Source: Spirochaetia bacterium (GTDB lineage: Bacteria; Spirochaetota; Spirochaetia; CADAEX01). From it: 55,953 nucleotides of DNA. The notes beneath the pieces were generated by a model. That model worked only from the letters and a program-made list of their open reading frames with translations, was not told the DNA's origin and searched no databases. Below are positions 1 through 14,431 of the stretch, piece by piece. The stretch lies in the NCBI GenBank assembly GCA_017642445.1, contig JAGCPA010000008.1:1-55953 (forward strand), read 5' to 3'. The number at the start of each line of letters is the position of its first letter. The first letter of the stretch is position 1. Position numbers and translations under genes: made by a program.

Positions 1-123
1 AAGAATAATATTACAGCCAGCAAAAGGCATGCCTGGCGGTGTCACGGACTTGTACGCACCACCGAGCAGGTGTACCTTATTGCTGGTTTTATAATGATTT
101 ACAAAGTTTTTGAAACTTTTTGA
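1..123 (+). pseudogene. Partial ORF tail at the window edge, possibly a DDE-transposase C-terminus
   Basis: An open frame enters at base 1 and stops at TGA 121-123, giving 40 residues rich in basic and aromatic residues. The pattern (His-Ala-Trp-Arg, His-Gly-Leu, then Thr-Glu-Gln-Val-Tyr-Leu followed by a hydrophobic stretch) loosely recalls the ends of DDE transposases, but this is a weak resemblance from a fragment. It could equally be a chance open frame. The next gene also looks like mobile-element cargo, which fits. Confidence 0.25.
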
Positions 124-140
124 GCAGAAATTGAAGCAAA

Positions 141-737
141 ATGAACATTTTTTGTGTATTAGTAGATATGAATGAGCAATTTTTTATATTTTCTGATAGT
201 GAAAGAAGGGAGAAAAGAAATGCATTGAAAGCCCTTACATCCGTGGAAGCAATGCCATTAGAGCAGGTACCTGAAATTTTTCGTAATCCCAAAGATAAGA
301 CACCTCAAATAATCAAACAAAGAAAAGAATGGATATTCTCTCACCTGCAGAACACATTTCCAGACTCACCCGTTGGGAAAATAATTATTTCAAGATCCAG
401 TATACACGATTCCTTGTTCAAAGGCTGTAATAGATTCAAAGCCGGGTTATATCCTATACTAGATAAGCTGATAGAAAGCAGTATTCTTCTTTACATCAAT
501 TTTGAAAGCGCAGACGATATTCAATTTATTTTGGGGAATAAGTATTCCAGGTCCGGAGCAAATGGATATGTCGGAATTGTGATTAGAACTGATAAAGATG
601 GGAAGAAATACTATTCACATACCATCTATCATAAAATTAGCCAGGCGGCCACAGGCGGAACTGGAAACCAGAACCTGACCCGGAATCTGCACCCGGCTGT
701 AAATAATATACTCCATGAAATTTTATCTGTCAACTAA
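141..737 (+). CDS. Protein resembling LPD3/PBECR-type modules of phage polyvalent proteins
   Basis: A 198-residue soluble protein with no signal peptide or membrane segment. Around residues 84-165 a helix containing 'SSIHDSL' and 'KLIESSILLYINFES' is followed by strands ending in 'RTDKDGKKYYSHTIYHK'. This helix-then-barnase-like-strand layout recalls the LPD3/PBECR (phage Barnase-EndoU-ColicinE5/D-RelE-like) modules of polyvalent proteins in phages and conjugative elements. The family call is from memory of the pattern and is tentative. ATG 141 and ATG 168 both lack a convincing Shine-Dalgarno sequence, so this may be the detached end of a once larger protein. It is visibly more AT-rich than the genes from 1059 onward, consistent with recent acquisition. 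Confidence 0.5.
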   Translation: MNIFCVLVDMNEQFFIFSDSERREKRNALKALTSVEAMPLEQVPEIFRNPKDKTPQIIKQRKEWIFSHLQNTFPDSPVGKIIISRSSIHDSLFKGCNRFKAGLYPILDKLIESSILLYINFESADDIQFILGNKYSRSGANGYVGIVIRTDKDGKKYYSHTIYHKISQAATGGTGNQNLTRNLHPAVNNILHEILSVN

Positions 738-739
738 AA

Positions 740-771
740 GTGTAGAAAAGGGGTATCATTCCTTGCTACAC
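740..771 (+). terminator. Hairpin directly after the 141-737 gene, weak terminator candidate
   Basis: GTGTAG (740-745) pairs with CTACAC (766-771), with further AAGG/CCTT pairing inside. It begins 3 bases after the stop codon. The sequence after it is only moderately T-rich, so intrinsic termination is uncertain. It sits at the change from AT-rich accessory DNA to the more GC-balanced host-like genes. Confidence 0.35.
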
Positions 772-811
772 CTACTGCTCTATTATTGTGAAAACAGACA
801 GAGGTTGCAGT

Positions 812-991
812 ATGGCAAGCAGATATGAAGGGTTAATAGGTTACGAATGGAAAGGATCACCGGAGCGGATCAGGATGCCTCTGGAGCAGCGGGCAAAGAT
901 ATTTGCCCCTTTTGCAGCTCTCAAGGGTTATTCTGAGCTGATAAAAAAGACCGAGGAAGAGGTCAGGCAGAGGTATGAGGGACAAAAATGA
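812..991 (+). CDS. YolD-like small protein linked to a Y-family polymerase
   Basis: A 59-residue protein. The motif 'RIRMPLEQRAKIFAPFAALKGY' (shown here as its two halves, RIRMP and RAKIFAPFAALKGY) matches the signature of YolD-like proteins of clostridia (R-M-S...RAAQFAPFAAL-x-GY). Those proteins are normally encoded beside a UmuC/DinB-type polymerase and are thought to be its accessory factor. Here the polymerase is 1.1 kb downstream on the same strand. I chose ATG 812 because AGAGG lies 7 bases before it; a GTG at 788 is also in frame but has no ribosome-binding site. The extreme C-terminus is charged and probably helical. Confidence 0.7.
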   Translation: MASRYEGLIGYEWKGSPERIRMPLEQRAKIFAPFAALKGYSELIKKTEEEVRQRYEGQK

Positions 992-1058
992 AAAAATGTG
1001 ATAGAATAAAATAAGGAAATAGAAGCGAAAGAATATCACCCAATCTTTTTATGATAAT

Positions 1059-1784
1059 ATGGCATCCCAATATGATAAGCTCTTCCTCGACTGGCACTCT
1101 ACAACAAGAGAACAGGCCATTATACTGGACAATATCTTCAGGGCGCATGGCTTTGACAAAACAGCAGGCATCCTGGACTGTGCATGCGGAATCGGGACAC
1201 AGGCGATAGGACTGGCAGCACTTGGATACCATGTCACAGCCTCAGATATCAGCGACGGAGAACTGGTAGAGGCAAAAGAGCGGGCCAGGAAGAATGGCGT
1301 TGAGATCCGGTTTGAGCATGCAGACTTCTGCACATTATCAGAAACATTCTCCGACCAGTTTGACATTGTCATTGCAATGGACAACGCTCTGCCTCACATG
1401 CTTTCAGGCGATGCCCTGGAGACAGCGGTCAGAAGCATTATCGGACAGATCAGACCAGGAGGCCTATTTGTTGCCAGCATCCGGGATTACGATTCTCTTC
1501 TAAAGAGCAGACCGCCCTATTCCCCACCATACATCCATAAGACTGCCAAGGGGCAGCGTCTCTCGTTCCAGACCTGGATCTGGAATGATGATCATTATCG
1601 GCTGACACAGTATATCATCGAGGATGAGGAGAAACTGAGCATCAGCAAGTTCGACTGTGAATACAGGGCTGTCCGCCGAGAAGAGCTGACAAAGCTGCTC
1701 AAGGATGCAGGTTGCAGTGAGGTCTCCTGGAAATTCCCTGAGGAGACTCAGTTCTACCAGCCTATTGTTGTGGCAAGAAAGTGA
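1059..1784 (+). CDS. Class I SAM-dependent methyltransferase
   Basis: A 241-residue Rossmann-fold methyltransferase. SAM-binding motif I is 'ILDCACGIGTQAIGLA', followed by 'VTASDIS' (acidic end of strand 2) and 'DIVIAMDNALPHM' (motif IV region). The C-terminal half is a small antiparallel domain. The family resembles glycine/sarcosine or small-molecule methyltransferases; the substrate cannot be read from sequence. An oddity is that the open frame upstream of ATG 1059 still encodes 'ITQSFYDN', which looks like the conserved N-terminus of this family, yet no ATG, GTG or TTG lies between it and the upstream stop at 1020. It sits 3 bases before the next gene, so it is probably in one operon with the YolD-like and polymerase genes. 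Confidence 0.8.
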   Translation: MASQYDKLFLDWHSTTREQAIILDNIFRAHGFDKTAGILDCACGIGTQAIGLAALGYHVTASDISDGELVEAKERARKNGVEIRFEHADFCTLSETFSDQFDIVIAMDNALPHMLSGDALETAVRSIIGQIRPGGLFVASIRDYDSLLKSRPPYSPPYIHKTAKGQRLSFQTWIWNDDHYRLTQYIIEDEEKLSISKFDCEYRAVRREELTKLLKDAGCSEVSWKFPEETQFYQPIVVARK

Positions 1785-1787
1785 CAG

Positions 1788-2111
1788 ATGATAGATTTCA
1801 AGGACAGCAATTTCAGACGCTACTTCCGCTGGGCACTGACCCTGATGATACTCCCCCTTGGAGTATTCTACTTCATCTATCCCCCTGTGATGGCATGGAG
1901 CCAGGAGCATATTCTGCAGCCCTTCTACTTCTATCTCTTTGACAAAGGCTACGATATCTCGTTCGTCATAAATATGCGTATTCTGGTCAAAGGGTTTATC
2001 TTCACTGTGCTTCTGGCAGTATGCTGGTTTCCCTCAACCTTGCTCATGCGCTACCTCTACTATCGCATCGTGGAGCACAAGCGCCACCCCGGCATCTTCG
2101 ACGAGAAATAA
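1788..2111 (+). CDS. Small membrane protein of unknown function
   Basis: A 107-residue protein with two predicted membrane segments at about residues 13-35 and 64-87, and a charged C-terminal tail rich in Arg, His and Lys. I do not recognise the family. It starts 3 bases after the methyltransferase stop and ends 3 bases before the polymerase start, so it is almost certainly cotranscribed with them. A link to DNA damage tolerance is suggested only by this position. Confidence 0.7.
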   Translation: MIDFKDSNFRRYFRWALTLMILPLGVFYFIYPPVMAWSQEHILQPFYFYLFDKGYDISFVINMRILVKGFIFTVLLAVCWFPSTLLMRYLYYRIVEHKRHPGIFDEK

Positions 2112-2114
2112 CAT

Positions 2115-3434
2115 ATGGAGCATGTCTACTTCGCAATAGACCTCAAATCCTTCTATGCATCGGTGGAATGTGTGGAGCGTGGGCTGGATCCTCTGACCAC
2201 GAATCTGGTGGTGGCTGACGTATCGAGAACCGAGAAGACTATCTGCCTGGCCGTGACCCCATCTCTGAAGGCCCAGGGGCTAAAGGGGCGGTGCAGGCTA
2301 TTCGAGGTGGTGCAGAAAGCAAGGGAGATTGAGGCCCTGACCGGCAGGAAGCTGGAATACATAACTGCAGTGCCCCGTATGGCCCTGTATATGGAGTACT
2401 CTGCCCGCATCTACGGCATCTACTTAAAATACTTCAGCCCCGACGACATCCATGTCTACAGCATAGACGAGGTTTTCATAGATGCCACTCCCTATATGGC
2501 CCTGTATAAAACAGATGCCCATACCCTGCTCCGCACCGTGATAAAAAGTGTCCTGTCCGAGACTGGAATAACAGCCACAGCCGGGATTGCCCCGAACCTT
2601 TATCTTTGCAAGGTTGCCATGGACATAGTGGCAAAACATTCGCCCCCAGACAGGAACGGCGTGCGGATAGCAGAGCTTACTGTGGAGAGCTACCGTAAAA
2701 CCCTGTGGAATCACCGTCCCATAACCGACTTCTGGCGCATAAGCCATGGTACAGCGGCCCGTCTTGAGCATCATGGGATGCGCACCATGGGTGACATCGC
2801 CGTCAGATCGCTGCAGAACGAGGCTCTGCTCTACAAACTCTTCGGCATAGATGCAGAGATCCTTATAGATCATGCCTGGGGTCTTGAGAACTGCACCATA
2901 GCCCACATAAAGAACTACAGGAGCACATCGCGCAGCCTCTGCTCGGGCCAGGTGCTGCACCACCCCTACCCTGTGGACAAAGCCCGTCTGGTGGTGCGGG
3001 AGATGGCAGAAGACCTGGCACAGGACCTGGTGGCAAAGAACCTGGCATCAGAGCAGTTCTCCCTCTATATTTTATATGACAAGAGCAGCACACCTGTTCC
3101 TATGGCAGACCATGGCCTGGTACATCTGGGAAGCCACACCGCATCGCTGCACAGGATAACCCGCGGAATCCTGGATATATTTGACCGGATTGCAGATCCT
3201 GCCCTGCTGATACGGCGGATAAATGTGTCGGCAGACACTGTGATAAATCAGAAGGATGAGCAGGCAGACCTATTTACTGACATGGCAGCCCAAAGAAAGG
3301 AAAGGTCGCTGCAGAACGCCATGCTGAGCATACAGAGCAGGTTCGGAAAGAATGCAATTCTAAAGGCAGATGATTATACAGAAGAGGCCACCGCCAGGGA
3401 TCGGAACGAGCAGATAGGAGGCCACCGGGCATGA
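2115..3434 (+). CDS. Y-family (UmuC/DinB-type) translesion DNA polymerase
   Basis: A 439-residue error-prone polymerase that would copy past damaged bases. The N-terminal palm has the first catalytic acid in 'FAIDLKSFYASVE' and the acidic pair in 'VYSIDEVFIDATPY'. The little-finger region follows at about 240-370. Residues 383-387 read QADLF, a good match to the beta-clamp binding motif (Q-x-x-L-F). It resembles the UmuC-like polymerases of Firmicutes that pair with YolD-like proteins, and such a protein is encoded at 812. No LexA-type SOS box was recognised upstream. The start overlaps nothing and is 3 bases after the preceding stop, suggesting translational coupling. Confidence 0.9.
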   Translation: MEHVYFAIDLKSFYASVECVERGLDPLTTNLVVADVSRTEKTICLAVTPSLKAQGLKGRCRLFEVVQKAREIEALTGRKLEYITAVPRMALYMEYSARIYGIYLKYFSPDDIHVYSIDEVFIDATPYMALYKTDAHTLLRTVIKSVLSETGITATAGIAPNLYLCKVAMDIVAKHSPPDRNGVRIAELTVESYRKTLWNHRPITDFWRISHGTAARLEHHGMRTMGDIAVRSLQNEALLYKLFGIDAEILIDHAWGLENCTIAHIKNYRSTSRSLCSGQVLHHPYPVDKARLVVREMAEDLAQDLVAKNLASEQFSLYILYDKSSTPVPMADHGLVHLGSHTASLHRITRGILDIFDRIADPALLIRRINVSADTVINQKDEQADLFTDMAAQRKERSLQNAMLSIQSRFGKNAILKADDYTEEATARDRNEQIGGHRA

Positions 3435-3458
3435 CAGAATATTATAGAAATTTTTTAT

Positions 3459-3487
3459 TTGCGTATCAGCTTATCTTATGATATATT
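3459..3487 (+). promoter_or_regulatory. Promoter of the KimA-like gene, leaderless arrangement
   Basis: TTGCGT (3459-3464), a 17-base spacer and TATATT (3482-3487). The start codon at 3494 begins 7 bases after the -10 box, so transcription should begin at or next to the ATG. There is no Shine-Dalgarno sequence. Confidence 0.5.
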
Positions 3488-3493
3488 AAAAAA

Positions 3494-5332
3494 ATGATAA
3501 AAAAACTTAAGCATCTGCTGATCGGAACCCCGCTTGCCGATTCCGAATTGGGAAACGAGAAATTCAATATTTTCTGGGGAATTCCAGTCTTTGCCAGCGA
3601 TGCCATATCATCTGTAAGCTATGCCGGAGAGGAAATCCTGCTGGTACTGATTCCTGTGCTGGGCATGCTTTCTTACCAATTCTTCCTGCCTATTGTTGCT
3701 GCAATCATAGGGCTCCTTGTCATCCTTATCTTCTGCTACCGCCAGACTATCGCAGCCTACCCACAGGGAGGAGGCGCCTATATTGTTGCCCATGAAAACC
3801 TGGGGCAGACCCCTGGCCTGGTCGCAGGAGGGGCTCTTATCATCGGCTATGTGCTGACAGTTGCTGTAAGTGCCTGTGCAGGTGCTGCCGCAATAACATC
3901 AGCTTTCCCGCAGCTGCTTAAATACAAAGCGCTCCTGGCTTTTGCAATCATATCTCTTCTGACATGGGGAAACCTGCGGGGCCTCAGGGAGTCTTCCGTC
4001 ATGTTCGGAGTCCCCACATATATCTTTATCCTGACAATGATCACACTGATTGTCACAGGTCTGATAAAATATGCCCTGGGTCTGTACACCCCTGAGCAGC
4101 AGGTTGTGGCAGTGCAGCAGGCAGAAGACACTTTAATGTTTGTCATGCTGAGGGCCTTTGCATCAGGCTGTACCGCGCTGACCGGTGTCGAGGCAGTCTC
4201 CAACGGTGTTCCCAACTTCAAGGAACCGACTGTCAAGAATGCAAAGACTGTCCTCTATGCCATGGCCGGCTTTGTGGCTTTAGTGTTCTTTGGAGTAAGC
4301 GCTCTTATAAACCTGTATCAGATTCAGCCTAACAGCGAGGCCACCGCAGTCAGCCAGCTGGCCGGCGCAGTTTTCGGACGTGGCAGCGCTATGTTCTTTG
4401 TAGTCCAGATCATGACAGTTATCATTCTTGCCCTGGCTGCCAACACAGCTTATGCAGGCATGCCGCTCCTGACCGCCCTCATGGCAAAAGACGGCTTCCT
4501 CCCCCGCAGGCTGGTTACACGGGGAGCACGGCTCAACTTCTCAAACGGTATCCTGTTCCTGTTTGCATCCTCTTCTATTCTGGTATTTGCATTCAACGGG
4601 GATCAGCATCTTCTGCTCCCGCTCTATGCAAGCGGCGTGTTCATCTCGTTCCTCCTCAACCAGTACGGAATGGTGGTCCACTGGATCAGGGAAAAAGGCA
4701 ATGGCTGGAAGATAAAGGCTATAATCAACGGCTTCGGAACTGTTGTGACAGGCATCACCCTGGTGGTGATTGTAATTGTGAAGTTCCTAAGCGGCGCATG
4801 GGTCACACTGATCTGCATAATCGCTCTTGTATATATGATGAGGAAGATCAGGAAGCATTATGTGACTGTTGCTGAAGACTTAAGAATTGAATCCACGCAG
4901 AAAGCGAAAGAAGTCATACGGAACGTAGCTTCCGGAAAGGTTATCCTTCCTATACAGTCCCTGAACCGTTCTTTCCTCAAGACCTTGAACTGCGCCCTGG
5001 GCTGCGGCTTTACCGAGGTTGAGATCTATCATATATCTGACAATAAGGAACGGGCAGAAGCCTTGAAAGCCTCCATCGGGGAGCTTGGACTCAATGCTGT
5101 CTTCCACTACGATATAACTCCTTACAGAAATATGAACGAGGTTCTGCTTAAGCATGTGGAGGAAGAGGCAGATAAACTTGGCCCCAACCGCAGCCTGGTA
5201 ATAATGATGGGCATGCTGGTTGTGACAAAACAGCTTGAGAAACCGCTGCACAACCAGACCACACAGCGGCTGATGAAAGAGCTTGAGACCTATCAGAATG
5301 TCTCTGTATTTACAGTCCCCTATCTGATTTAA
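3494..5332 (+). CDS. KimA-like APC-superfamily transporter (probable K+ importer)
   Basis: A 612-residue inner-membrane transporter with about 12 membrane segments up to roughly residue 455 and a soluble C-terminal domain of about 150 residues. The N-terminus 'LIGTPLADSELGNEK', followed by 'FASDAISSVSYAGEEILL', closely follows the pattern of Bacillus KimA (YdaO), a KUP-family proton/potassium symporter of nearly equal length. Potassium as substrate is inferred from this resemblance; an amino-acid permease is the alternative. Its stop is one base from the stop of the convergent His-rich gene. The upstream region is too short for a c-di-AMP (ydaO) riboswitch, unlike in Bacillus. Confidence 0.75.
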   Translation: MIKKLKHLLIGTPLADSELGNEKFNIFWGIPVFASDAISSVSYAGEEILLVLIPVLGMLSYQFFLPIVAAIIGLLVILIFCYRQTIAAYPQGGGAYIVAHENLGQTPGLVAGGALIIGYVLTVAVSACAGAAAITSAFPQLLKYKALLAFAIISLLTWGNLRGLRESSVMFGVPTYIFILTMITLIVTGLIKYALGLYTPEQQVVAVQQAEDTLMFVMLRAFASGCTALTGVEAVSNGVPNFKEPTVKNAKTVLYAMAGFVALVFFGVSALINLYQIQPNSEATAVSQLAGAVFGRGSAMFFVVQIMTVIILALAANTAYAGMPLLTALMAKDGFLPRRLVTRGARLNFSNGILFLFASSSILVFAFNGDQHLLLPLYASGVFISFLLNQYGMVVHWIREKGNGWKIKAIINGFGTVVTGITLVVIVIVKFLSGAWVTLICIIALVYMMRKIRKHYVTVAEDLRIESTQKAKEVIRNVASGKVILPIQSLNRSFLKTLNCALGCGFTEVEIYHISDNKERAEALKASIGELGLNAVFHYDITPYRNMNEVLLKHVEEEADKLGPNRSLVIMMGMLVVTKQLEKPLHNQTTQRLMKELETYQNVSVFTVPYLI

Positions 5333-5333
5333 T

Positions 5334-5675
5334 TTACTTAGTCTGCTGAGGCTCCGCAGGAGTCTTAGGCTGCGGTGTCACAGGCTTCTGGTCGCCAGGC
5401 TTAAAACCAGGCTTCTTATCCCAAGGCTTGAAGCCAGGCATCATATGCTTTGGCGGAAAGTGGCCGAACTTGTAGGGATGACACTTGAAGTGATGATGAC
5501 CGAAGGCTGGAGCAGCTGCCTGTGCAGAAGCTGCACTTACAATCGGATAATGATGTCCATGATCATGGCCGCTGTGCATTGCCATAGGGATAAGGATGCA
5601 CATCTGCACCACCAGAAGGACAAGAATCACAATAGCGATTGTGAATATTGCGAATAAAAGTTTGTTGTTTTCCAT
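5334..5675 (-). CDS. Small membrane-anchored His/Pro-rich protein
   Basis: A 113-residue protein with one N-terminal membrane helix (about residues 6-28) followed by a low-complexity outward-facing tail. The tail holds clusters such as 'HSGHDHGHHYP' and 'GHHHFKCHP', then Pro/Lys/Gln-rich repeats of the type PGFKP. Histidine clusters like these commonly bind Ni, Zn or Cu, but no function is established here. I chose ATG 5675 because AGAGGTG lies 6 bases upstream; a GTG at 5684 is part of that ribosome-binding site. The family is not recognised. Confidence 0.7.
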   Translation of the reverse strand: MENNKLLFAIFTIAIVILVLLVVQMCILIPMAMHSGHDHGHHYPIVSAASAQAAAPAFGHHHFKCHPYKFGHFPPKHMMPGFKPWDKKPGFKPGDQKPVTPQPKTPAEPQQTK

Positions 5676-5764
5676 AAATTTCACCTCTTTCAGTTTTTTT
5701 TAATTTACACACTTAAAACCGGAAGAGGACATAAATTGTTTATGAAAAAACAATGAAAGTTTTG

Positions 5765-6877
5765 TTATTTTTCCCAGGGGAAGATATACTGAGTCAGCTT
5801 AAGCTCATCACGGATGGCAGAGATCTCCTTCTGGACAGGCTCGGTGATAGGAACACCCTTGTCCTTCCGCTCAAGCCACACCTTCCACTCCTTCTCTCCT
5901 GCGGTGAAGATGTGCTCTGCACCTGGTGCCTTTGTGGAGTTACGGACCTTGCGGATAATCTCTCCCGCCTTCTTCCGTGCCAGCTCCTCGCCCAGGAAGT
6001 GGCCTGTATCAATAGCGATGAAGAAGTGTCCCAGATGGTATGGGCCCGGCTTTCCGACAGGATCTTTGCCTACAAGCATCTCGCCATAAGCGCCATCCTG
6101 CAGGATTGCAGAAAGAAGCTCGACAACCATGGCATAGCCATAGCCCTTGTAGCCGCCAAGCGCCTCCCCTGCACCGCCCAACGGAAGGAGCGCCGCATCT
6201 CCCTTGCGGATCATCTTGAGGGCCTTGTCGGGGTCGCCTTCGTATTCCTGGCCGTCGTGGGTGATGACAGTCCCCTGATGCACCGGCTCTCCGGTGCGGA
6301 TATAGTACTCAATCTTGCCGTTCTGTGTGATTGATGTGGCACAGTCAAGGATAAAGTCGAAATCCTCGTCGGTAGGAATGCCGATAGTAAGAGGGTTTGT
6401 GCCGAACATGCCGTCCACACCCCAGGTAGGTGCAACCGACGGGCGGGCGTTGGTTCCTGTAAGCCCTATACAGCCCTGCTTTGTTGCCTGGGTGGCATAG
6501 TAGCCTGCGATTCCGTAGTGGCAGGAGTTGCGGACTACAGTCATTCCCATTCCATACTTCTTAGCCTTGTCTATAGCCAGCTGCATGGCCTTGTATCCGA
6601 TGACCTGCCCCATGCCGTCGTGACCGTCGATGACAGCTGTGGTCTCGGTCTCCTTAAGTATCTCAAAGTTGGTGACAGGATTCTGGATGCCTGCCTTTAT
6701 ACGGTCCAAATAGATAGGCTTGAAGCGGTTGCAGCCATGGCTCTCTATGCCCCGGCGGTCCGATTCCAGAAGGACATCGGTACAGATCTTGGCATCCTCC
6801 TCAGGCACGCCATAACCTTTGAATGCATCGGTAACAAAAGAAGTGATAAGATCCCATGGACAAACAACTCTGCTCAT
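5765..6877 (-). CDS. Malate/L-lactate dehydrogenase family oxidoreductase (Ldh_2)
   Basis: A 370-residue cytoplasmic NAD(P)-dependent 2-hydroxyacid dehydrogenase of the Ldh_2 family (malate, lactate, ureidoglycolate and 2,3-diketogulonate dehydrogenases). Visible family features are 'SHGCNRF' near the N-terminus, 'DGHDGMGQVIGYKAM', 'VRNSCHYGIAGYYA' with the conserved His, 'GTNPLTIGIP' and 'GGYKGYGYAMVVELLSAIL'. The exact substrate is not decidable. I chose ATG 6877 because GGAGG lies 5 bases upstream; the longer frame from 6895 lacks such a site. It stands alone between oppositely oriented or separately promoted genes. Confidence 0.88.
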   Translation of the reverse strand: MSRVVCPWDLITSFVTDAFKGYGVPEEDAKICTDVLLESDRRGIESHGCNRFKPIYLDRIKAGIQNPVTNFEILKETETTAVIDGHDGMGQVIGYKAMQLAIDKAKKYGMGMTVVRNSCHYGIAGYYATQATKQGCIGLTGTNARPSVAPTWGVDGMFGTNPLTIGIPTDEDFDFILDCATSITQNGKIEYYIRTGEPVHQGTVITHDGQEYEGDPDKALKMIRKGDAALLPLGGAGEALGGYKGYGYAMVVELLSAILQDGAYGEMLVGKDPVGKPGPYHLGHFFIAIDTGHFLGEELARKKAGEIIRKVRNSTKAPGAEHIFTAGEKEWKVWLERKDKGVPITEPVQKEISAIRDELKLTQYIFPWEK

Positions 6878-6915
6878 ACAAGCCTCCGCAATCATAATAT
6901 ACTATAAATTTATCG

Positions 6916-6945
6916 TTGACAACTTTTCTTTCAAAATACTATATT
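6916..6945 (+). promoter_or_regulatory. Promoter of the RiPP-like precursor gene
   Basis: TTGACA (6916-6921), 18-base spacer, TATATT (6940-6945). Transcription would start near 6952, placing AAAGGATGG and the ATG at 6967 in a very short leader. This is one of the best consensus promoters in the window. Confidence 0.65.
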
Positions 6946-6966
6946 GAAAAAAAGGATGGAAAAAAA

Positions 6967-7209
6967 ATGTCTGACAATAAAAAGAAAATTGCCATGGAAA
7001 TGCTTGAGAAAGCAGCAAAATGCAAGAGTGCCGAGGAACTGATCGCTCTTGCAAAGACAGAAGGTATCCAGATCACAAAGGCAGAGGCCGAGGCTTATCT
7101 GGCCGAGCTTGCCGATGCAGAGATGAAACCTGAGCTGCTTGAGAAAATAGCAGGGGGCTTCCATTGTGGTTCATACTGCCTGGAGCTTGAAGGCGAATCC
7201 CACTACTGA
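6967..7209 (+). CDS. Double-glycine leader peptide, Nif11-like RiPP/secreted-peptide precursor candidate
   Basis: An 80-residue protein. Residues 1-64 form a helical, acidic leader in which 'SAEELIALAKTEGIQITKAEAEAYLAEL' (read as SAEELIALAK, TEGIQITKAE, AEAYLAEL) resembles Nif11-type leaders. The leader ends 'ELLEKIAGG', the classic double-Gly cleavage site used by C39-peptidase ABC exporters. The 16-residue core is FHCGSYCLELEGESHY, with two Cys and one Ser available for modification. Start ATG 6967 has AAAGG upstream. No modifying enzyme, C39 transporter or immunity gene is in the window; the neighbours are a dehydrogenase and PBP1A. The alternative is an unmodified secreted signal peptide. 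Confidence 0.72.
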   Translation: MSDNKKKIAMEMLEKAAKCKSAEELIALAKTEGIQITKAEAEAYLAELADAEMKPELLEKIAGGFHCGSYCLELEGESHY

Positions 7210-7219
7210 TCCTCCGGTA

Positions 7220-7246
7220 TTGATTATTACTTATATATTTTATAAA
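7220..7246 (+). promoter_or_regulatory. Possible promoter giving leaderless PBP1A mRNA
   Basis: TTGATT (7220-7225), a short 15-base spacer, TATAAA (7241-7246). The ATG at 7255 begins 9 bases after the -10 box and has no Shine-Dalgarno sequence. Readthrough from the upstream peptide gene is also possible. Confidence 0.35.
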
Positions 7247-7254
7247 TTATTTAT

Positions 7255-9645
7255 ATGGGATTCTCTAAAGCCAGCAAATTCTTCATTATATTCTTCATAA
7301 TCTGCATAGCTATAGGATGCGGCATTGTAGGCTTTGGTTTCGGCACCTTATATGCTGCGAACCGCCATGTGACAGAAGCTGATATGCTCAAGGAATTCCA
7401 GCCTTCCCTTCCATCTACACTCCTGGATATCCACGGCGATGTCATAACCGAGTTCTTTGCTGAGCAGAAACGGGATATAATCCCTGTTGATGAGCTTCCA
7501 AAGGAGCTTATCTACGCCATCATCACAAGGGAGGACAAGAACTTCTTCCAGCACCGGGGTTTCAGCTTCAAGGGAACGGTCCGGGCTGCCCTGAACATAG
7601 CGCTCAATCAGTATGTATCAGGTGGAAGCACAATAACCCAGCAGGTGGCAGGAGCCAACTATGCAGACCGCTCCCTCAAGACTATAAAAAGAAAGCTTAT
7701 AGAGCTCTGGTGGGCCTTCCAGATGGAGAAGAACCTGACCAAGAACGAGATTCTGGAGATGTACCTGAACGAGTCCTACTTCGGCCACACCACATATGGC
7801 GTGGAGGCGGCATCCCAGTTCTATTTCAAGCATTCGGCACGCAATATAAGCATTGCAGAGTCTGCCATCCTGGTGATCCAGCTGGCAAACCCGGCACGCT
7901 ATTCTCCTATAAAGCATCCTAACAGAGCCAAGGTGCTGCAGCGCGAGGTCCTGGACCAGATTGTACGCTCCAACTACGCAACTCAGGAGGCTACAGACCT
8001 CTCCTTCGAACAGTACTGGAACGATATCTACGACCCGCTCCGCTCCACCAGCGAGAACGCATACCTGGTCAAGAACGACAAGGCTCCATACTTCAGCGAA
8101 TATATAAGACAGGAACTTGAGGATATGCTGTTCGGCAAGATGGATTATCTGCGGGACGGCCTTATCATTCACTCCACCCTGGACTTAAGCTACCAGAAGA
8201 CTGCAGATAAGTATATGCAGGATGGTATATACAACTTCAATAAAAAATATCAGGAGAGCAGCGGAAACCGCACCAGCTATGTCGATAATGAGTTCGGCCC
8301 TATTGTGGAAGCCCTCTCCCTCCTCTACAATATCGATTCTATAAGAGCAACAGGTGTCAAGCAGCGCAAGTATTCAAACCGTATTTTCCAGGAGGAGATA
8401 ACCCCTATTCTGGAGACTGTGTCGCTTCTTTTCGACTCTGAGCCTATCAACTTCATATCCAAGCTTTCTTATTCAAAAGGACAGGCCAAGCTGACCAAGA
8501 CCACTATAGAGGGTGCACTGATAATCCTGGAGAACGAGACCGGCCATATAAAGGCTATGGTTGGCGGAAGCGGCTTTGAGGTAAAGAAGTTCAACCGTGC
8601 TGTGCAGGCAAAGGTAATGCCTGGATCATCCTTCAAGCCTCTCTACTACTCAGCTGCAATCTCCAAGGGAATCATAACTCCTGCGACCATGCTCCTGGAT
8701 AAGCCTATGGCATTTATAAACGATGACGGCTCGCCATATACACCGCTTAACTTCCTGGGTGAATGGCAGGGAACTGCCACTGTGCGGGAGGCTCTCTCCA
8801 ACTCTATGAACGTTCCATCCATCGAGGTTCTGGAGATGGTAGGCTTCGATGCGGCAATAAACCGTGCAGCCAAGCTTTTAGGCATAAACGATCCGGCACA
8901 GATTGCCAAGACATTCCCTAAGAAATATCCTCTTGGTCTGGGTATCATAGGTATAGCCCCTATCCAGATGGCAAGGGCCTTTGCCACATTTGCAAACCAG
9001 GGCAAGGAGGTGGTTCCTATCGGAATCCGCTTTATAGAGGACCGGAACGGCAAGATTCTGTTCGAGCCTGAGAAAGACCTGCGGATTGAGCAGAGAGAGG
9101 CCGGCGACAAGCGTCAGATTCTCTCTCCACAGGCTGCATATATTATGGTAGACCTTTTGAAGAGCACAGTTGAGACCGGAACCCTGGCCAACAGAAGGCG
9201 GGCTGTAGGCGGCTTCCCTATGCCGTTCGCAGGAAAGACCGGAACAACTCAGAACTGGTCCGATGCATGGACTGTGGGCTTCTCCCCTTATATAACAACT
9301 GCTGTATGGTTCGGCTTTGATATGCCGGGCAACTCACTTGGTCTGAACCAGACCGGAGCTACTGCCGCAGGGCCTGTATGGGCAAATGTGATGAAAGATA
9401 TCCACCTGGCCAATTCCCAGAAGATGCCTCCTGCCGACTTCCCACGTCCTGCAGGAATAACCGAGGTCACTGTCTGCAGCAAGTCGGGTATGATTCCTAC
9501 TGCCGACTGCACCGATGGCCAGAGGAAGGAGATTTTTATTTCCGGCACAGAGCCAAAGTCGTTCTGCACCCTCCACAAGTTTGAGAAACAGCGGAATAAC
9601 GAGCTTCTCCAGAGACTTCAGGAGAATCTTTTCGACAGCTTATGA
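7255..9645 (+). CDS. Class A penicillin-binding protein 1A
   Basis: A 796-residue bifunctional peptidoglycan synthase. One N-terminal membrane helix (about residues 8-35) anchors it to the inner membrane. The GT51 glycosyltransferase domain has 'REDKNFFQHRGF' (catalytic Glu93), 'GGSTITQQVA' and 'KNEILEMYLN'. The transpeptidase domain has SSFK (Ser458, Lys461), SMN in 'ALSNSMNVPS' and KTG at 661-663. A spacer or OB-like region lies between the two domains. Both activities look intact. No ribosome-binding site precedes the only plausible start. The extended C-terminal tail after KTG includes a short Cys-containing segment of unknown role. Confidence 0.96.
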   Translation: MGFSKASKFFIIFFIICIAIGCGIVGFGFGTLYAANRHVTEADMLKEFQPSLPSTLLDIHGDVITEFFAEQKRDIIPVDELPKELIYAIITREDKNFFQHRGFSFKGTVRAALNIALNQYVSGGSTITQQVAGANYADRSLKTIKRKLIELWWAFQMEKNLTKNEILEMYLNESYFGHTTYGVEAASQFYFKHSARNISIAESAILVIQLANPARYSPIKHPNRAKVLQREVLDQIVRSNYATQEATDLSFEQYWNDIYDPLRSTSENAYLVKNDKAPYFSEYIRQELEDMLFGKMDYLRDGLIIHSTLDLSYQKTADKYMQDGIYNFNKKYQESSGNRTSYVDNEFGPIVEALSLLYNIDSIRATGVKQRKYSNRIFQEEITPILETVSLLFDSEPINFISKLSYSKGQAKLTKTTIEGALIILENETGHIKAMVGGSGFEVKKFNRAVQAKVMPGSSFKPLYYSAAISKGIITPATMLLDKPMAFINDDGSPYTPLNFLGEWQGTATVREALSNSMNVPSIEVLEMVGFDAAINRAAKLLGINDPAQIAKTFPKKYPLGLGIIGIAPIQMARAFATFANQGKEVVPIGIRFIEDRNGKILFEPEKDLRIEQREAGDKRQILSPQAAYIMVDLLKSTVETGTLANRRRAVGGFPMPFAGKTGTTQNWSDAWTVGFSPYITTAVWFGFDMPGNSLGLNQTGATAAGPVWANVMKDIHLANSQKMPPADFPRPAGITEVTVCSKSGMIPTADCTDGQRKEIFISGTEPKSFCTLHKFEKQRNNELLQRLQENLFDSL

Positions 9646-9653
9646 TTTTTTAG

Positions 9654-9683
9654 TTGGCAAATCAGCTTCCCCACTGATATAAT
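9654..9683 (+). promoter_or_regulatory. Promoter of the ParB-domain gene
   Basis: TTGGCA (9654-9659), 18-base spacer, TATAAT (9678-9683), immediately after PBP1A. The transcript would carry AAAGGAG before the GTG at 9702. Confidence 0.6.
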
Positions 9684-9701
9684 AAGAGAAAGGAGTATGC
9701 C

Positions 9702-10157
9702 GTGCAGGTCAATATCAAAGATATAATCGTCAAAAAAAGAGCCCGGAAAGATGAAGGCGACCTTACAACGCTGATGGAAAGCCTTGATAAGATCGGCCAG
9801 CTTAATCCTATCATCCTGAACTCAAAGATGGAGCTTATTGCCGGCTACCGCAGGCTTACTGCAGCCAAGAAACTGGGCTGGACCAAGATAAGCGCCACCA
9901 TAATCGAAATAAACGACAAAGCCGACATGCTTGCCATAGAGATTGACGAGAATGTCCAGCGCCTGGCCTTTGATGATGCCGACCTGGCAGAGGCCTATAA
10001 GAAGCTTCAGAAGCTGCGCAGGAAGAATATATTTGTCAGAATCTGGCTTAAGATAAAAGCTTTCTTCAAGAAGATTTTCTGCAGGAAGAAAAAAGAGGTA
10101 AAGACTGAGGTCAGTCAGGAAGTAACTGCAGTGGAAGAGAAGAAGGAGCAGGCTTAG
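9702..10157 (+). CDS. Short ParB/Sulfiredoxin-fold domain protein
   Basis: A 151-residue protein. Residues 1-95 form a ParB N-terminal (CTPase-fold) domain: 'VKKRARKDEGDLTTLMESL', 'GQLNPIIL' and 'ELIAGYRRLTAAKKLGW' (the box-II-like motif), then 'IEIDENVQR'. It lacks the ParB helix-turn-helix and dimerisation domains. In their place residues 104-127 are very basic and aromatic ('IFVRIWLKIKAFFKKIFC'), likely an amphipathic, membrane-binding helix, and the tail is acidic. It is therefore unlikely to be the chromosome-segregating ParB. The GTG start has AAAGGAG upstream. Its end overlaps the convergent LysM gene by 4 bases. Confidence 0.8.
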   Translation: MQVNIKDIIVKKRARKDEGDLTTLMESLDKIGQLNPIILNSKMELIAGYRRLTAAKKLGWTKISATIIEINDKADMLAIEIDENVQRLAFDDADLAEAYKKLQKLRRKNIFVRIWLKIKAFFKKIFCRKKKEVKTEVSQEVTAVEEKKEQA

Positions 10158-10990
10158 GTTCTCGGAGCCTTGCGCTCATCTACAGGATTGCCATCCTTCC
10201 ATACACAGAAATAGACGATAGATTTACCTGTCTCCATATTTGCAAGAGGAATTCCCAGCTCTGTCCCAGGGCTCACCTTGTCCCCGATATTGACCATGGT
10301 ATCCTCGTTTCCACCATAGATATAGATATAACCGCTGTTGTTCTCGACCAGGATCACATTCCCCATTCCGCGGTACTGACCTACATACTTAACTGTTCCT
10401 GTTGATACAGAATGAACTACTGCATTCTTGTCTGCAGATATCATTGTTCCCTTGAGCTTGCCTGTAAGAGGCTCTCTCGGCCCTTCTGCAGGCCAGAAGT
10501 ATGGGGCTTTCTCGTTGACAGGAGCAGCTGGTTTCTGAGCAGTGTTTGCAGGCTTGGTTGCCGGGGTTGCTGCTGGTTTTGGAGCAGGCTTCTGCGCTGT
10601 ATTTGCAGCCGGCTTGATATTGTTGTTGGATGTGCTTCCGCCCGGTATTGTCAGTATTTTTCCAACATAGAGTTTATCGGTGTCCTTGATATTGTTTGTG
10701 CTCTTGAGCGCTGCTACAGTAGTACCATATTTTTTTGCGATTCCGGTAAGGGTGTCGCCCTTCTGCACTGTGTATTTAGTTGTCTTAGGAGGAATTATGA
10801 GCTTGGTTCCCACATTGACTTTGTTAGGGTTCTTTATGTTGTTCGCCTTGATGATATCGGAAACAGAAACCCCGTATTTCTGGGCCACTGTAGAGAGGTT
10901 ATCCCCTTTCTTCATTGTATAAGTAGTTGCAGCCATAGCAAAAGCTGAGACAAATATCAATATAAATACAAATAAAAGTTTCTTACTCAT
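10154..10990 (-). CDS. LysM-LysM-M23 (degenerate LytM) envelope protein
   Basis: A 278-residue exported protein. The signal peptide (residues 1-20) ends 'SAFAMAA'. Two LysM domains follow ('YTMKKGDNLSTVAQKYGVS' and 'YTVQKGDTLTGIAKKYGTT'), which bind peptidoglycan. Then comes an Ala/Pro/Lys-rich linker (about 118-160) and an M23/LytM-like domain. The zinc ligands of active M23 enzymes (HxxxD and HxH) are not visible: the final strand reads 'IVYFCVWKDGNPVD', with no His. It is more likely a non-catalytic LytM protein of the EnvC/NlpD type that activates an amidase. AAAGGTG precedes the ATG. Confidence 0.85.
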   Translation of the reverse strand: MSKKLLFVFILIFVSAFAMAATTYTMKKGDNLSTVAQKYGVSVSDIIKANNIKNPNKVNVGTKLIIPPKTTKYTVQKGDTLTGIAKKYGTTVAALKSTNNIKDTDKLYVGKILTIPGGSTSNNNIKPAANTAQKPAPKPAATPATKPANTAQKPAAPVNEKAPYFWPAEGPREPLTGKLKGTMISADKNAVVHSVSTGTVKYVGQYRGMGNVILVENNSGYIYIYGGNEDTMVNIGDKVSPGTELGIPLANMETGKSIVYFCVWKDGNPVDERKAPRT

Positions 10991-11047
10991 ATAGAGACAC
11001 CTTTACTTTTATATCGGCTGTATGGCAAAAACCTTTAGCCTATGGAT

Positions 11048-11076
11048 TTGACAGATAGCCTAGTATGAGATAGTAT
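11048..11076 (+). promoter_or_regulatory. glpX promoter
   Basis: TTGACA (11048-11053), 17-base spacer, TAGTAT (11071-11076). The leader of about 30 bases holds GAGGGG ahead of ATG 11114. A second TATAAT-like box lies at 11088-11093. Confidence 0.65.
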
Positions 11077-11113
11077 TATGTATATCATATAATTAATAAG
11101 AGGGGATTTTTAT

Positions 11114-12115
11114 ATGGAAAAGATGAACAGAGAATTCTCCATGGAAATAGCCAGAATTACAGAGTATGCTGCTATTGCCAGTGCCAGATGGTGGGGAAAA
11201 GGCGATAAAATAGCTGCAGATGGGGCTGCAACAGAGGCTATGCGGGCAATGTTTGACTCTGTAAGTATCGCAGGAACCGTAGTTATCGGCGAAGGCGAGA
11301 TGGACGAGGCACCAATGCTCTACATCGGCGAGAAAGTTGGTAAATGGGACGAAGGCGACTTTGCTGTTGATATTGCAGTAGACCCGCTGGAGGGAACCAA
11401 CCTGGTTGCAAAGGGTATGCCTGGTGCAATAACTACCCTGGCAATGGCTCCAAGCGGAACCCTTCTGAACGCTCCTGATATGTATATGGATAAGATAGCA
11501 GCTGGTCCAAAGTGCAAGGGAAAGATCTTCCTTGACGCATCTGTGACCGACAACCTGAAGGCTGCTGCCAAGGCTCTGGACAAGAGCGTAGGCGATATTA
11601 CAGTTGTAGTACTTGACCGGCCACGGCACAAGGCAATTATCGATGAGATCAGAGCCTGCGGTGCCAGAATCAAGCTTATTACAGACGGCGATGTGGCTCC
11701 TGCAGTTTCCTGCGGATTCCCAGAAAGCGGTATCGATATGATGATCGGCACCGGCGGAGCACCGGAAGGTGTTCTGGCAGCAGCCGCACTCAAGGCAATA
11801 GGCGGCGAGTTCCAGGGACGGCTTCACCCTATGAAGGATGGCGAGCTTGAGAGAGCTGCAAAGATGGCTGGAAAAGATCCGCTCCGTCTGCTTACAATTG
11901 ACGATCTGGTTCAGACACAGGATGTTATGTTCGCTGCAACCGGCGTAACCGACGGCGAGCTCTTGAACGGTGTCCGCTTCTACGGCAACAACGAGGCCTC
12001 AACAAAGACAATCATACTGCGTGGATCCTCCGGAACAGTGCGGTTCATCGAGTCAAGACACCACCTGGACCGCAAGGGCGAGAAGACCTGGAAGCTCTTT
12101 GCTCCGATTGCATGA
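11114..12115 (+). CDS. glpX: Class II fructose-1,6-bisphosphatase
   Basis: A 333-residue cytoplasmic phosphatase that removes the 1-phosphate of fructose 1,6-bisphosphate in gluconeogenesis. The GlpX signature is clear: 'VVIGEGEMDEAPMLYIGEKVG' (seen as VVIGEGEMDE and APMLYIGEKVG), 'VDIAVDPLEGTNLVAKG', and 'GTGGAPEGVLAAAALKAIGG'. These supply the metal-binding acidic residues and the substrate loop. Length is typical. It has its own promoter and a GAGGGG ribosome-binding site, and is followed after 9 bases by dCMP deaminase on the same strand. Confidence 0.95.
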   Translation: MEKMNREFSMEIARITEYAAIASARWWGKGDKIAADGAATEAMRAMFDSVSIAGTVVIGEGEMDEAPMLYIGEKVGKWDEGDFAVDIAVDPLEGTNLVAKGMPGAITTLAMAPSGTLLNAPDMYMDKIAAGPKCKGKIFLDASVTDNLKAAAKALDKSVGDITVVVLDRPRHKAIIDEIRACGARIKLITDGDVAPAVSCGFPESGIDMMIGTGGAPEGVLAAAALKAIGGEFQGRLHPMKDGELERAAKMAGKDPLRLLTIDDLVQTQDVMFAATGVTDGELLNGVRFYGNNEASTKTIILRGSSGTVRFIESRHHLDRKGEKTWKLFAPIA

Positions 12116-12124
12116 GGTTTAGAT

Positions 12125-12607
12125 ATGAGTGACAACAGGCCTTCCTGGGACGATTATTTTCTTGAAGTGATGGATGCAATATCCAAACGGGCAACCTGCG
12201 ACAGAGGCAAAAGCGGCTGTGTTATAGCCAAGGACAACCAGATCCTGGTTACCGGCTATGTCGGAAGCCCTGCTGGCCTGCCCCACTGCGACGAGGTGGG
12301 ACACCAGATGAAGAAGATGATACACGAGGATGGCCATATCACTCAGCACTGTGTGCGGACAGTACATGCAGAGCAGAATGCGATATGCCAGGCTGCAAAG
12401 CGGGGTATCTCCATAGAGGGAGGTACCCTGTACTGCCGTATGACCCCCTGCCGCACCTGCACCATGCTTATCATAAACTGCGGTATTAAGCGTGTGGTAT
12501 GCCAGCAGCGCTATCATGTGGCCGAGGAATCTGAGGCAATGCTCAAGATGGCAAATATAAAGCTGGAATACAAAAGTACAGAGACTGTACAGTATAAGAA
12601 TCAGTAA
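12125..12607 (+). CDS. dCMP deaminase (ComEB-like)
   Basis: A 160-residue zinc-dependent deaminase converting dCMP to dUMP for dTTP synthesis. The zinc site is 'TVHAEQNAI' (His ligand plus catalytic Glu) and 'MTPCRTCTMLIINCGI' (two Cys ligands). 'GYVGSPAGLPHCDE' is characteristic of the dCMP deaminase subgroup rather than tRNA or guanine deaminases. GAGG lies 7 bases before the ATG. Probably cotranscribed with glpX. It ends 9 bases from the convergent lepA stop. Confidence 0.93.
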   Translation: MSDNRPSWDDYFLEVMDAISKRATCDRGKSGCVIAKDNQILVTGYVGSPAGLPHCDEVGHQMKKMIHEDGHITQHCVRTVHAEQNAICQAAKRGISIEGGTLYCRMTPCRTCTMLIINCGIKRVVCQQRYHVAEESEAMLKMANIKLEYKSTETVQYKNQ

Positions 12608-12616
12608 TTTTAAAGA

Positions 12617-14422
12617 TTAATCGTTCTCTTCTGTCTTAAGCACAGCCAGGAATGCGCTCTGCGGCAGCTCCACATTGCCTACCACCTTCATGCGCTTCTT
12701 TCCCTCTTTCTGTTTCTCAAGAAGCTTACGCTTACGGGAGATATCGCCGCCGTAGCACTTGGCTGTGACATCCTTGCGGTATGCGCTTATGGTCTCGCGG
12801 GCTATGATTGTGCTTCCAATGGCACCCTGGATAGGAATCTTGAACTGGTGCCGCGGGATCTCGTCGCACAGCTTCCTGCATACATGACGTGCCTTATCTA
12901 CTGCGCTGTCCTTGAATACAAGCATGGAGAGGGCATCCACAGGGCTGCCGTTGACCAGGATATCAAGCTTAACAAGGTTTGTAGGTTTGAATCCCTGGAT
13001 CTCGTAGTCGAAGGAGGCATAGCCGCGGCTTATTGATTTAAGCCTGTCATAGAAATCGAAAAGAACCTCTGCAAGAGGCATATCATAGATAACCTCCACC
13101 CTCTTCTGATCCAGATAGTTCATGGAGGTCTGCACTCCCCTTTTTTCCATGCACAGTGTCATGATAGGCCCCAGATATTCGGACGGAGTTATAATTGATG
13201 CCGCAATATAAGGTTCCTCGCAGTAGTCGATGCTGACAGGGTCTGGGAAATCCATAGGGTTGTTTATCTTGAGCATCTCGCCGCTCTTAAGGTAGACATT
13301 GTACATTACAGAAGGCGATGTGAATACGATGGAAAGGTCAAACTCCCGCTCTATGCGCTCCTGGATCACCTCCAGATGGAGAAGTCCTAAGAAACCGCAC
13401 CTGAAGCCGAAGCCCAGGGCAGATGATGAGTCTTTCTCGTAGATAAGAGATGCATCGTTAAGCTTAAGCTTCTCGATGGCAGCAAGGAGCTCCTCATAGT
13501 CGTTTGAGTCCACCGGATAGATGGATGAGAATACTACAGGCTTTACTTCCTTGAAGCCCTCCAGCGGGTCAGAAGCAGGGTCATCAGCCAGTGTTATGGT
13601 ATCGCCGATATGAACATCGGAGATATTCTTGATTCCTGCGTTTATGTAGCCTACATCCCCTTCATTGAGGCCGTCGTTCTTTTCAAGGTTTATCTTGAAA
13701 AGGCCTGTCTCCTCAACGCGGTAGGTTCCGCCCGAGATCATGAACTTGATGGTCTGGCCAGCCTTTATCATGCCGGAGAAGACGCGGATATTCACTATTA
13801 CTCCCCGGTATGGGTCGTAGTGGGAATCGAATATAAGAGCCCGGAGCTTGTCGTCCTTGGCCGGCGGCGGAGATGGAATATACTGGATTATAGCCTCGAA
13901 AAGCTCATCAACCCCCTGCCCTGTCTTGGCCGAAACCATAACAGCCATGTCTGAGTCAAGTCCCAGGTCATGGTCGATCTGGTACTTAACCCCTTCTATA
14001 TCTGCGCTGGGCAGGTCTATCTTGTTGATTACAGGGATAATCTCCAGGTTGTGGTCTATAGCCATGTACATGTTGGCCAGAGTCTGAGCCTCTACACCCT
14101 GTGTCGCATCTATAAGGAGCAGCGCCCCTTCGCAGGAAGAGATGGCACGGGAAACCTCGTAGGAGAAGTCCACATGACCTGGGGTGTCAACCAGGTTGAG
14201 CACATACTCCTGGCCATCCTTGGCTGTGTATCTTAAGGTTACAGCCTGGGATTTGATGGTTATTCCCCGCTCCCGCTCTATATCCATGTTATCAAGGATC
14301 TGATTCATTGAGGTGCGGCTGTCCACCAGGGCAGCCTTCTCTATAAAGCGGTCTGCCAGTGTGGATTTACCGTGGTCGATATGGGCTATAATGCAAAAGT
14401 TCCGTATCCGCTTTGTATCCAT
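12617..14422 (-). CDS. lepA: Elongation factor 4 (LepA) GTPase
   Basis: A 601-residue translational GTPase that acts on stalled or initiating ribosomes. The G1 motif is 'AHIDHGKST', G3 'DTPGHVDF' and G4 'NKIDLP'. The LepA-specific C-terminal domain follows ('[19 protein letters not shown]', read as AKCYGGDIS and [10 protein letters not shown]). Length is typical. ATG 14422 lies 9 bases after the upstream gene's stop. No Shine-Dalgarno sequence is visible and a TATAAT overlaps the upstream stop codon, so it is either translationally coupled or has its own leaderless transcript. It is the last gene of the long minus-strand block. Confidence 0.97.
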
Positions 14423-14431
14423 ACGCAATAA

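What the first reader, a model, noticed from the sequence alone, without database searches (positions are those of the whole stretch)
6967..7209. Orphan double-glycine precursor peptide with a Cys-containing 16-residue core
The sequence shows an 80-residue protein with a helical acidic leader ending IAGG and a short core (FHCGSYCLELEGESHY). Nif11-type leaders are known to guide RiPP enzymes and C39 exporters. It has its own near-consensus promoter (TTGACA-18-TATATT) and a Shine-Dalgarno sequence, yet no modification, export or immunity gene is nearby. Precursors distant from their enzymes are easily missed by cluster-based mining, so this may belong to an undescribed spirochete peptide system.
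Basis: partly seen in the sequence, partly recalled or inferred. Interest (0 to 1): 0.72.

Follow-up and report, generated by a model that had tools for sequence, protein, structure and literature searches.

The report
Orphan precursor of exported rumen peptides
A small gene in a rumen spirochaete encodes one of about 14 scattered precursors for short cysteine-bearing peptides, whose modifying enzymes and exporter lie elsewhere in the same genome; several sister peptides of this family occur unchanged in unrelated rumen bacteria.

Summary
No modification or export gene was found beside it. It is a selected gene: against its orthologue in a related yak MAG there are 11 synonymous and 1 replacement changes (core 4:0), and homology starts exactly at the -35 box. 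The 'orphan' has its machinery elsewhere in the same genome: 13 more precursors of this leader type, one radical-SAM/SPASM maturase inside a precursor array, and one NHLM cassette (B12-radical-SAM methyltransferase, HlyD, C39-peptidase ABC, second ABC, TolC). LanC and YcaO are absent. Leader, maturase and C39 exporter are absent together from one congener and three sister-genus genomes; in another congener precursor, maturase and export genes form one locus. The leader family was found in one genus among 393 spirochaete genomes, and in rumen Negativicutes, including the isolate Succiniclasticum ruminis. Eleven other cores (not this one) recur there at 82-100% identity although synonymous sites are saturated. 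Some relatives carry an intein-like Hint domain behind the core. Verdict: a real RiPP-type precursor, a new variant of the known Nif11/NHLM kind. Chemistry and activity are inferred. P0001 scores below the curated Nif11 cut-offs.

The parts
6916..6945 (+). Promoter: -35 TTGACA (6916-6921), 18-nt spacer, -10 TATATT (6940-6945)
   Evidence: 11/12 match; both hexamers and spacing conserved in G006 at the point where homology begins; same layout at other solitary-type precursors
6953..6956 (+). Weak Shine-Dalgarno AGGA, 10 nt before ATG (AAGGAG in the G006 orthologue)
   Evidence: sequence
6967..7158 (+). Leader, 64 residues, ends LLEKIAGG; C39 recognition residues M-12, L-7, I-4, A-3, G-2, G-1
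   Evidence: TIGR03798 28.6 bits (cut-off 32.3), PF07862 18.5 bits (cut-off 23.8); LahT recognition data PMC6363468
7153..7158 (+). Double-glycine cleavage site (Gly63-Gly64)
   Evidence: invariant in alignments A1 and A3
7159..7206 (+). Core peptide FHCGSYCLELEGESHY (16 aa, 2 Cys)
   Evidence: 4 synonymous / 0 non-synonymous changes vs G006; no similar core among the other precursors held
7207..7209 (+). Stop codon TGA; homology to the G006 orthologue ends here

Best explanation
The gene is a free-standing precursor of a RiPP-type exported peptide that works in trans with enzymes and an exporter encoded elsewhere in the same genome. Its leader (residues 1-64) is the shared recognition tag of about 14 precursors. 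Inferred route: the leader is bound by the radical-SAM/SPASM maturase (G000:C50) and possibly the B12-radical-SAM methyltransferase (G000:C74), which modify the Cys-bearing core, most likely by a thioether bond from one or both cysteines of HCGSYC; the C39 domain of the NHLM ABC transporter then cuts after Gly-Gly and exports the 16-residue core through HlyD and TolC. Shown here: a selected gene with its own conserved promoter, the shared leader, presence of enzymes and exporter in the genome, their joint absence where the leader is absent, and their physical linkage with other precursors of this leader type. Inferred: that this particular core is modified, the bond type, and the role outside the cell (peptide-mediated interaction in the rumen; killing or signalling cannot be told apart).
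For: Selection on leader and core. Promoter-plus-gene module present at this site in G000 and G006; the same ldh/pbp neighbours lack it in G003 and G004. 15 matches = 14 paralogues in the genome. One C39 exporter in the genome, TIGR03796 998 bits against a cut-off of 853, in an operon with TIGR03975, TIGR03794 and TIGR03797, all above cut-off, plus TolC. SPASM maturase with CNFRCPYC motif between precursors in G000:C50. Leader and C39 are absent from G001 and G007-G009, and the maturase from G007-G009, with only a weak partial match in G001. In G004:C63 MATE, B12-rSAM, HlyD, C39, ABC2, TolC, SPASM-like protein, maturase, a precursor and DUF7005 form one locus; in Succiniclasticum ruminis a precursor lies between maturase and TIGR03975, upstream of HlyD and C39. 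Recognition positions -12/-7/-4 match those shown for the C39 protease LahT on Nif11 leaders (PMC6363468).
Against: No expression or mass data. P0001 is below the curated family cut-offs. Its core resembles no other core, so no linked enzyme can be assigned to it specifically. The B12 methyltransferase is missing in G002, which keeps 34 leader matches, so it is dispensable. 19 of 170 short cores lack Cys, so Cys chemistry is not universal. All spirochaete genomes that could be named here are MAGs.
Confidence: 0.7

Rival explanations
1. The core is exported without modification: a class-II-bacteriocin-like or microcin-like linear peptide, at most with a Cys67-Cys71 disulfide formed outside the cell. 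The C39 exporter handles all leaders, but the radical-SAM enzymes act only on the cores encoded beside them.
For: The B12-rSAM is absent in G002 despite 34 leader matches; 19 of 170 short cores lack Cys; P0001 is on a different contig from both enzymes and its core is unlike the CY-type cores beside the maturase.
Against: All leaders, linked and unlinked, share the same conserved positions, and the maturase is present wherever the leaders are.
Confidence: 0.23
2. A relic: a duplicated precursor cut off from its cluster and no longer used.
For: It is solitary, and only G000 and G006 have it.
Against: 11:1 synonymous to non-synonymous changes, conserved promoter, intact GG.
Confidence: 0.04
3. 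Not a secreted-peptide precursor but a small intracellular Nif11-fold protein, for example regulatory or an adaptor.
For: Weak profile matches to Nif11 and to the arginine repressor N-terminus.
Against: Invariant A-G-G followed by cores of unrelated sequence; co-occurrence with the C39 exporter.
Confidence: 0.03

Closest known systems
Nif11-derived precursor peptides (N11P, TIGR03798) with NHLM export, Haft et al. 2010 (PMC2887384)
   Same: Long leader ending AGG, large paralogous families, short variable cores, the same export cassette TIGR03794/03796/03797
   Different: Haft et al. [quoted passage not shown] here LanC and YcaO are absent, radical-SAM enzymes take their place, hosts are a rumen spirochaete genus and Negativicutes, P0001 is sub-threshold for the model, and some relatives carry a Hint domain
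Prochlorosins (ProcA/ProcM) of marine picocyanobacteria
   Same: Nif11 leaders, many precursors served by few enzymes (up to 30 substrates in Prochlorococcus MIT9313; PMC6363468, PMC10783134)
   Different: No LanC-type cyclase domain in the genome, so no lanthionines expected; 11 cores are conserved across phyla
Nif11-leader peptides with a radical-SAM maturase (TIGR04064, Haft 2011, PMC3023750)
   Same: Nif11-type leader with a radical-SAM/SPASM enzyme as candidate maturase
   Different: The maturase scores 66.7 bits for TIGR04064 (cut-off 518.7) and is nearest to TIGR04463 (148 of 525 needed), so it is outside the named families; it is accompanied by TIGR03975 and DUF7005
LahA/LahT of Lachnospiraceae C6A11 (PMC6363468)
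   Same: Nif11 leaders with diverse cores, cut by a tolerant C39 protease at GG
   Different: Lanthipeptide cluster; precursors clustered with their enzymes

Membership tests
Nif11-like leader RiPP precursor (TIGR03798 / PF07862) | Score above the curated cut-off | tested here: not met
   P0001: 28.6 vs 32.3 bits and 18.5 vs 23.8 bits. All 20 aligned leaders match TIGR03798 at E<=0.001 and a Hint-bearing sibling exceeds both cut-offs (47.3 and 36.4 bits).
Nif11-like leader RiPP precursor (TIGR03798 / PF07862) | Double-Gly motif ending the leader, followed by a variable core | tested here: met
   A62, G63, G64 invariant in A1 and A3; 183 distinct cores
Nif11-like leader RiPP precursor (TIGR03798 / PF07862) | Paralogous expansion together with NHLM export | tested here: met
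   14 paralogues and one TIGR03794/03796/03797 set in the genome
NHLM export cassette | TIGR03794, TIGR03796 and TIGR03797 above cut-off in one operon | tested here: met
   285/156, 998/853 and 763/709 bits, G000:C74
Lanthipeptide (prochlorosin-like) | LanC-like cyclase domain in the genome | tested here: not met
   no PF05147 in 10 genomes
TOMM / thiopeptide-like | YcaO in the genome | tested here: not met
   no PF02624 in 10 genomes
Named radical-SAM/SPASM RiPP maturases (TIGR04463, CefB, PapB, TIGR04064) | Score above the curated cut-off | tested here: not met
   148/525, 131/600, 109/340 and 67/519 bits
Sactipeptide / ranthipeptide | Cys thioether cross-link in the mature core | not testable with these tools
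   needs mass spectrometry
Self-processing Hint/intein domain (sibling precursors only) | Catalytic Cys1, block-B His, C-terminal His-Asn | tested here: not met
   PF13403 above cut-off and intein fold, Cys1 invariant, but the block-B motif reads TESQ (no His) in all six aligned copies and the C-terminus reads EG

The most novel reading that the evidence does not exclude
The precursors encode a shared rumen repertoire: individual cores are conserved molecules, kept nearly unchanged across two phyla by purifying selection while their leaders drift, so they act as specific conserved effectors or signals rather than as fast-evolving arms-race toxins; a subset is fused to an intein-like Hint domain that could release the core as an activated thioester. 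P0001 would be a lineage-specific addition to this set.
Probability: 0.3. Interest if true: 0.82.

Novelty: new variant of a known kind. Interest (0 to 1): 0.6.

Why it matters
Cluster-based mining would be likely to miss this gene and most of its paralogues, because they lie away from any enzyme. The family gives a defined set of dispersed substrates for one radical-SAM/SPASM maturase outside all named families, in a genus of rumen spirochaetes known here only from MAGs, and a related system in a cultured isolate (Succiniclasticum ruminis DSM 9236) where it can be tested. Cores that are identical across phyla at saturated synonymous divergence make the open question of what large Nif11 peptide families are for directly testable. 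Hint domains inside RiPP precursors were not found described in the searched literature.

Tried and rejected
Lanthipeptide and TOMM readings: no LanC, no YcaO. Plasmid or phage carriage: no match in either collection. A core like that of P0001 elsewhere: best score 27, below the mean best score of shuffled queries, 29. Active Hint self-cleavage: not claimed, since block-B His and C-terminal HN are missing. Cross-phylum sharing as contamination: disfavoured, because the shared cores differ at most synonymous sites, leaders differ by 25-48% in protein sequence, several MAGs agree, and one carrier is an isolate. Caveat on method: one of the 20 hand-entered rows of alignment A1 (row 18) is a composite of two sequence fragments, not a real protein; searches with P0001 alone find the same spirochaete genus and the same Negativicutes genomes, so conclusions do not depend on it. 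The pairs were chosen for >=80% core identity, so the low core pN there is partly by selection; the saturated pS is not.

Full report
What is there. Window 6967-7209 encodes MSDNKKKIAMEMLEKAAKCKSAEELIALAKTEGIQITKAEAEAYLAELADAEMKPELLEKIAGG|FHCGSYCLELEGESHY. It lies between a divergent dehydrogenase-like gene (5765-6895, -) and a penicillin-binding-protein gene (7255-9645, +). A promoter-like TTGACA-18-TATATT ends 21 nt before the ATG. No RiPP enzyme or exporter was seen in the ORFs of window 1-16000, and those found in the genome lie on other contigs.

It is a working gene. The orthologue in G006 (the RGIG9769 yak omasum MAG) is 79/80 identical in protein but differs by 11 synonymous and 1 non-synonymous base changes; the core alone has 4 and 0. 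Homology between the two genomes begins at the -35 hexamer and ends at the stop codon; the adjoining flanks are unrelated, and in G003 and G004 the same two neighbours stand side by side without the precursor. So promoter plus gene behave as one module. The precursors at C75:42041, C87:55151 and C75:87139, which stand alone, and the one behind the maturase at C50:5928 have the same layout, with the -10 ending 18-20 nt before the ATG.

It has a family and machinery in the genome. P0001 matches 15 places in its own genome, 14 genes if the two contig-end pieces C95/C82, which overlap in sequence, are one. Contig C74 carries MATE, a B12-binding radical-SAM enzyme above the cut-off of TIGR03975 (RiPP C-methyltransferase), HlyD (TIGR03794), the C39-peptidase ABC exporter (TIGR03796), a second ABC (TIGR03797), a periplasmic-binding-like protein, TolC, and a 534-residue protein with a SPASM-like end but no CX3CX2C motif. 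Contig C50 carries two precursors, then a 514-residue radical-SAM/SPASM enzyme (motif CNFRCPYC), another precursor, and a DUF7005 protein with an HECAH motif. The SPASM enzyme is far below the cut-off of every named maturase; nearest are TIGR04463, CefB, Clo7bot and PapB. LanC and YcaO domains are absent.

The pieces belong together. Leader and C39 exporter are missing in G001 (same genus) and in the three sister-genus genomes, as is the maturase, apart from a weak partial match in G001; the five other congeners have leaders and maturase, and four of these have the exporter (G005, a 190-contig MAG, is the exception). In G004:C63 the export operon, maturase, a precursor and DUF7005 form one contiguous locus. 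In the isolate Succiniclasticum ruminis DSM 9236 the order is DUF7005, maturase, precursor, TIGR03975, adaptor, HlyD, C39. Of the set, TIGR03975 is dispensable: in G002 MATE is followed directly by HlyD.

Distribution. Among 393 sampled spirochaete genomes the leader occurs only in this genus, yet similar leaders (50-67% identical) abound in rumen Negativicutes: 23 matches in S. ruminis, 5 to 31 in MAGs labelled Selenomonadales, Selenomonadaceae, Acidaminococcaceae, Succiniclasticum or Schwartzia. None were found on plasmids or phages. Transfer between phyla is the simplest reading; its direction was not tested.

Cores. The held loci give 221 distinct precursors and 183 distinct cores; of 170 short cores (median 17 residues) 151 contain Cys, 114 at least two, and 105 a Cys followed by an aromatic residue. 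Eleven of 72 spirochaete cores of at least 10 residues have a counterpart in Negativicutes at 82-100% identity, four of them identical (YCLTDCIDPDCIEKGMFHP, GCYSDCKAEAWL, TCTLEGTSCWTLSN, GCYPDCPKDYCFEN), although synonymous sites are saturated (pS 0.72) and the leaders differ more (pN 0.23 against 0.045 in the cores). The pairs were picked for core similarity, so the low core pN is partly by selection; the saturated pS shows that the sharing is not recent contamination. Two of the four identical cores (TCTLEGTSCWTLSN at C46, GCYPDCPKDYCFEN at C75) are encoded in the window's own genome. The core of P0001 has no such counterpart.

How it most likely works. Leader-guided modification by radical-SAM enzymes acting in trans, then C39 cleavage after Gly-Gly and type-I export. 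Cleavage is the best-supported step: LahT, a C39 protease, recognises the last 13 leader residues, with positions -4, -7 and -12 critical (PMC6363468), and P0001 has I-4, L-7, M-12. Modification of this particular core is inferred. If it is modified, a Cys thioether is the likeliest bond, by analogy with PapB and other thioether-forming maturases among the enzyme's relatives (from general knowledge). The biological role is open.

Hint domains. Eleven precursors in G002-G006, and several in Negativicutes, continue after the core into a Hint domain (PF13403 above cut-off); none was found in the window's genome. A low-to-moderate-confidence model (mean pLDDT 65) matches the Clostridium thermocellum bacterial intein-like domain best. 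Cys1 is invariant, but the block-B His is replaced (TESQ) in all six aligned copies and the terminal His-Asn is missing, so self-cleavage must be shown, not assumed.

Compared with the known. This is the Nif11/NHLM kind of Haft et al. 2010 (PMC2887384), with radical-SAM enzymes instead of LanM or YcaO enzymes; Haft 2011 (PMC3023750) already paired Nif11 leaders with radical-SAM maturases. A survey of 8,160 rumen genomes reports many 'bacteriocin' clusters in Acidaminococcaceae and sactipeptide clusters in Selenomonas, and its main text does not mention spirochaetes (PMC8241843). New here: the host genus, the dispersed promoter-plus-gene modules, a maturase outside the named families, cores conserved across phyla, and Hint-bearing precursors. 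P0001 itself is below the curated Nif11 cut-offs, so it is not filed as a formal member.

Noticed in passing
G002:C6 (L047/L085), G003:C65, C58 and C78, G005:C104, G006:C32, G004:C130, Negativicutes L097: Precursors whose core runs into an intein-like Hint domain; many of the spirochaete copies are followed by a truncated second leader ending ELYIA or VYIA and a stop (TAG where read). Block-B His and C-terminal HN are missing.
   Followed up: partly
L039:6239-7057 (G000:C50) and L096:2286-3176 (S. ruminis): DUF7005 protein (HECAH in the spirochaete copy, a metalloenzyme-like HExxH) beside the maturase in both phyla; a possible further modification or leader-processing enzyme.
   Followed up: partly
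L037:16918-18522 (G000:C74): 534-aa protein with a SPASM-like C-terminus but no CX3CX2C motif, conserved in the export operons of congeners and near precursors in Negativicutes (41-48% identical).
   Followed up: partly
window 5765-9645: Mosaic ancestry: the dehydrogenase gene is 99% identical to G006 and 94% to G003, whereas the neighbouring PBP gene (first 200 residues) is 94.5% identical to G003 and 81% to G006, which suggests recombination around the precursor.
   Followed up: no
L045:9953-12660 (G002:C15): The B12-radical-SAM gene is missing: MATE is followed directly by HlyD although 34 leader matches remain in this genome.
   Followed up: partly
L013:2024-2239 (G000:C46): Array copy with core GCWKCLDDCGQTIVL lacks an in-frame start and first helix: a pseudogene or an assembly error.
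   Followed up: no
window 5334-5684 (-): 116-aa protein with an N-terminal hydrophobic segment and a His/Pro/Lys-rich tail (SGHDHGHHYP...GHHHFKCHP...), possibly metal-binding.
   Followed up: no
PDB 9zn4_A: A solved 'Nif11 domain-containing protein' matches the leader alignment A1 (E = 2.5e-5).
   Followed up: no
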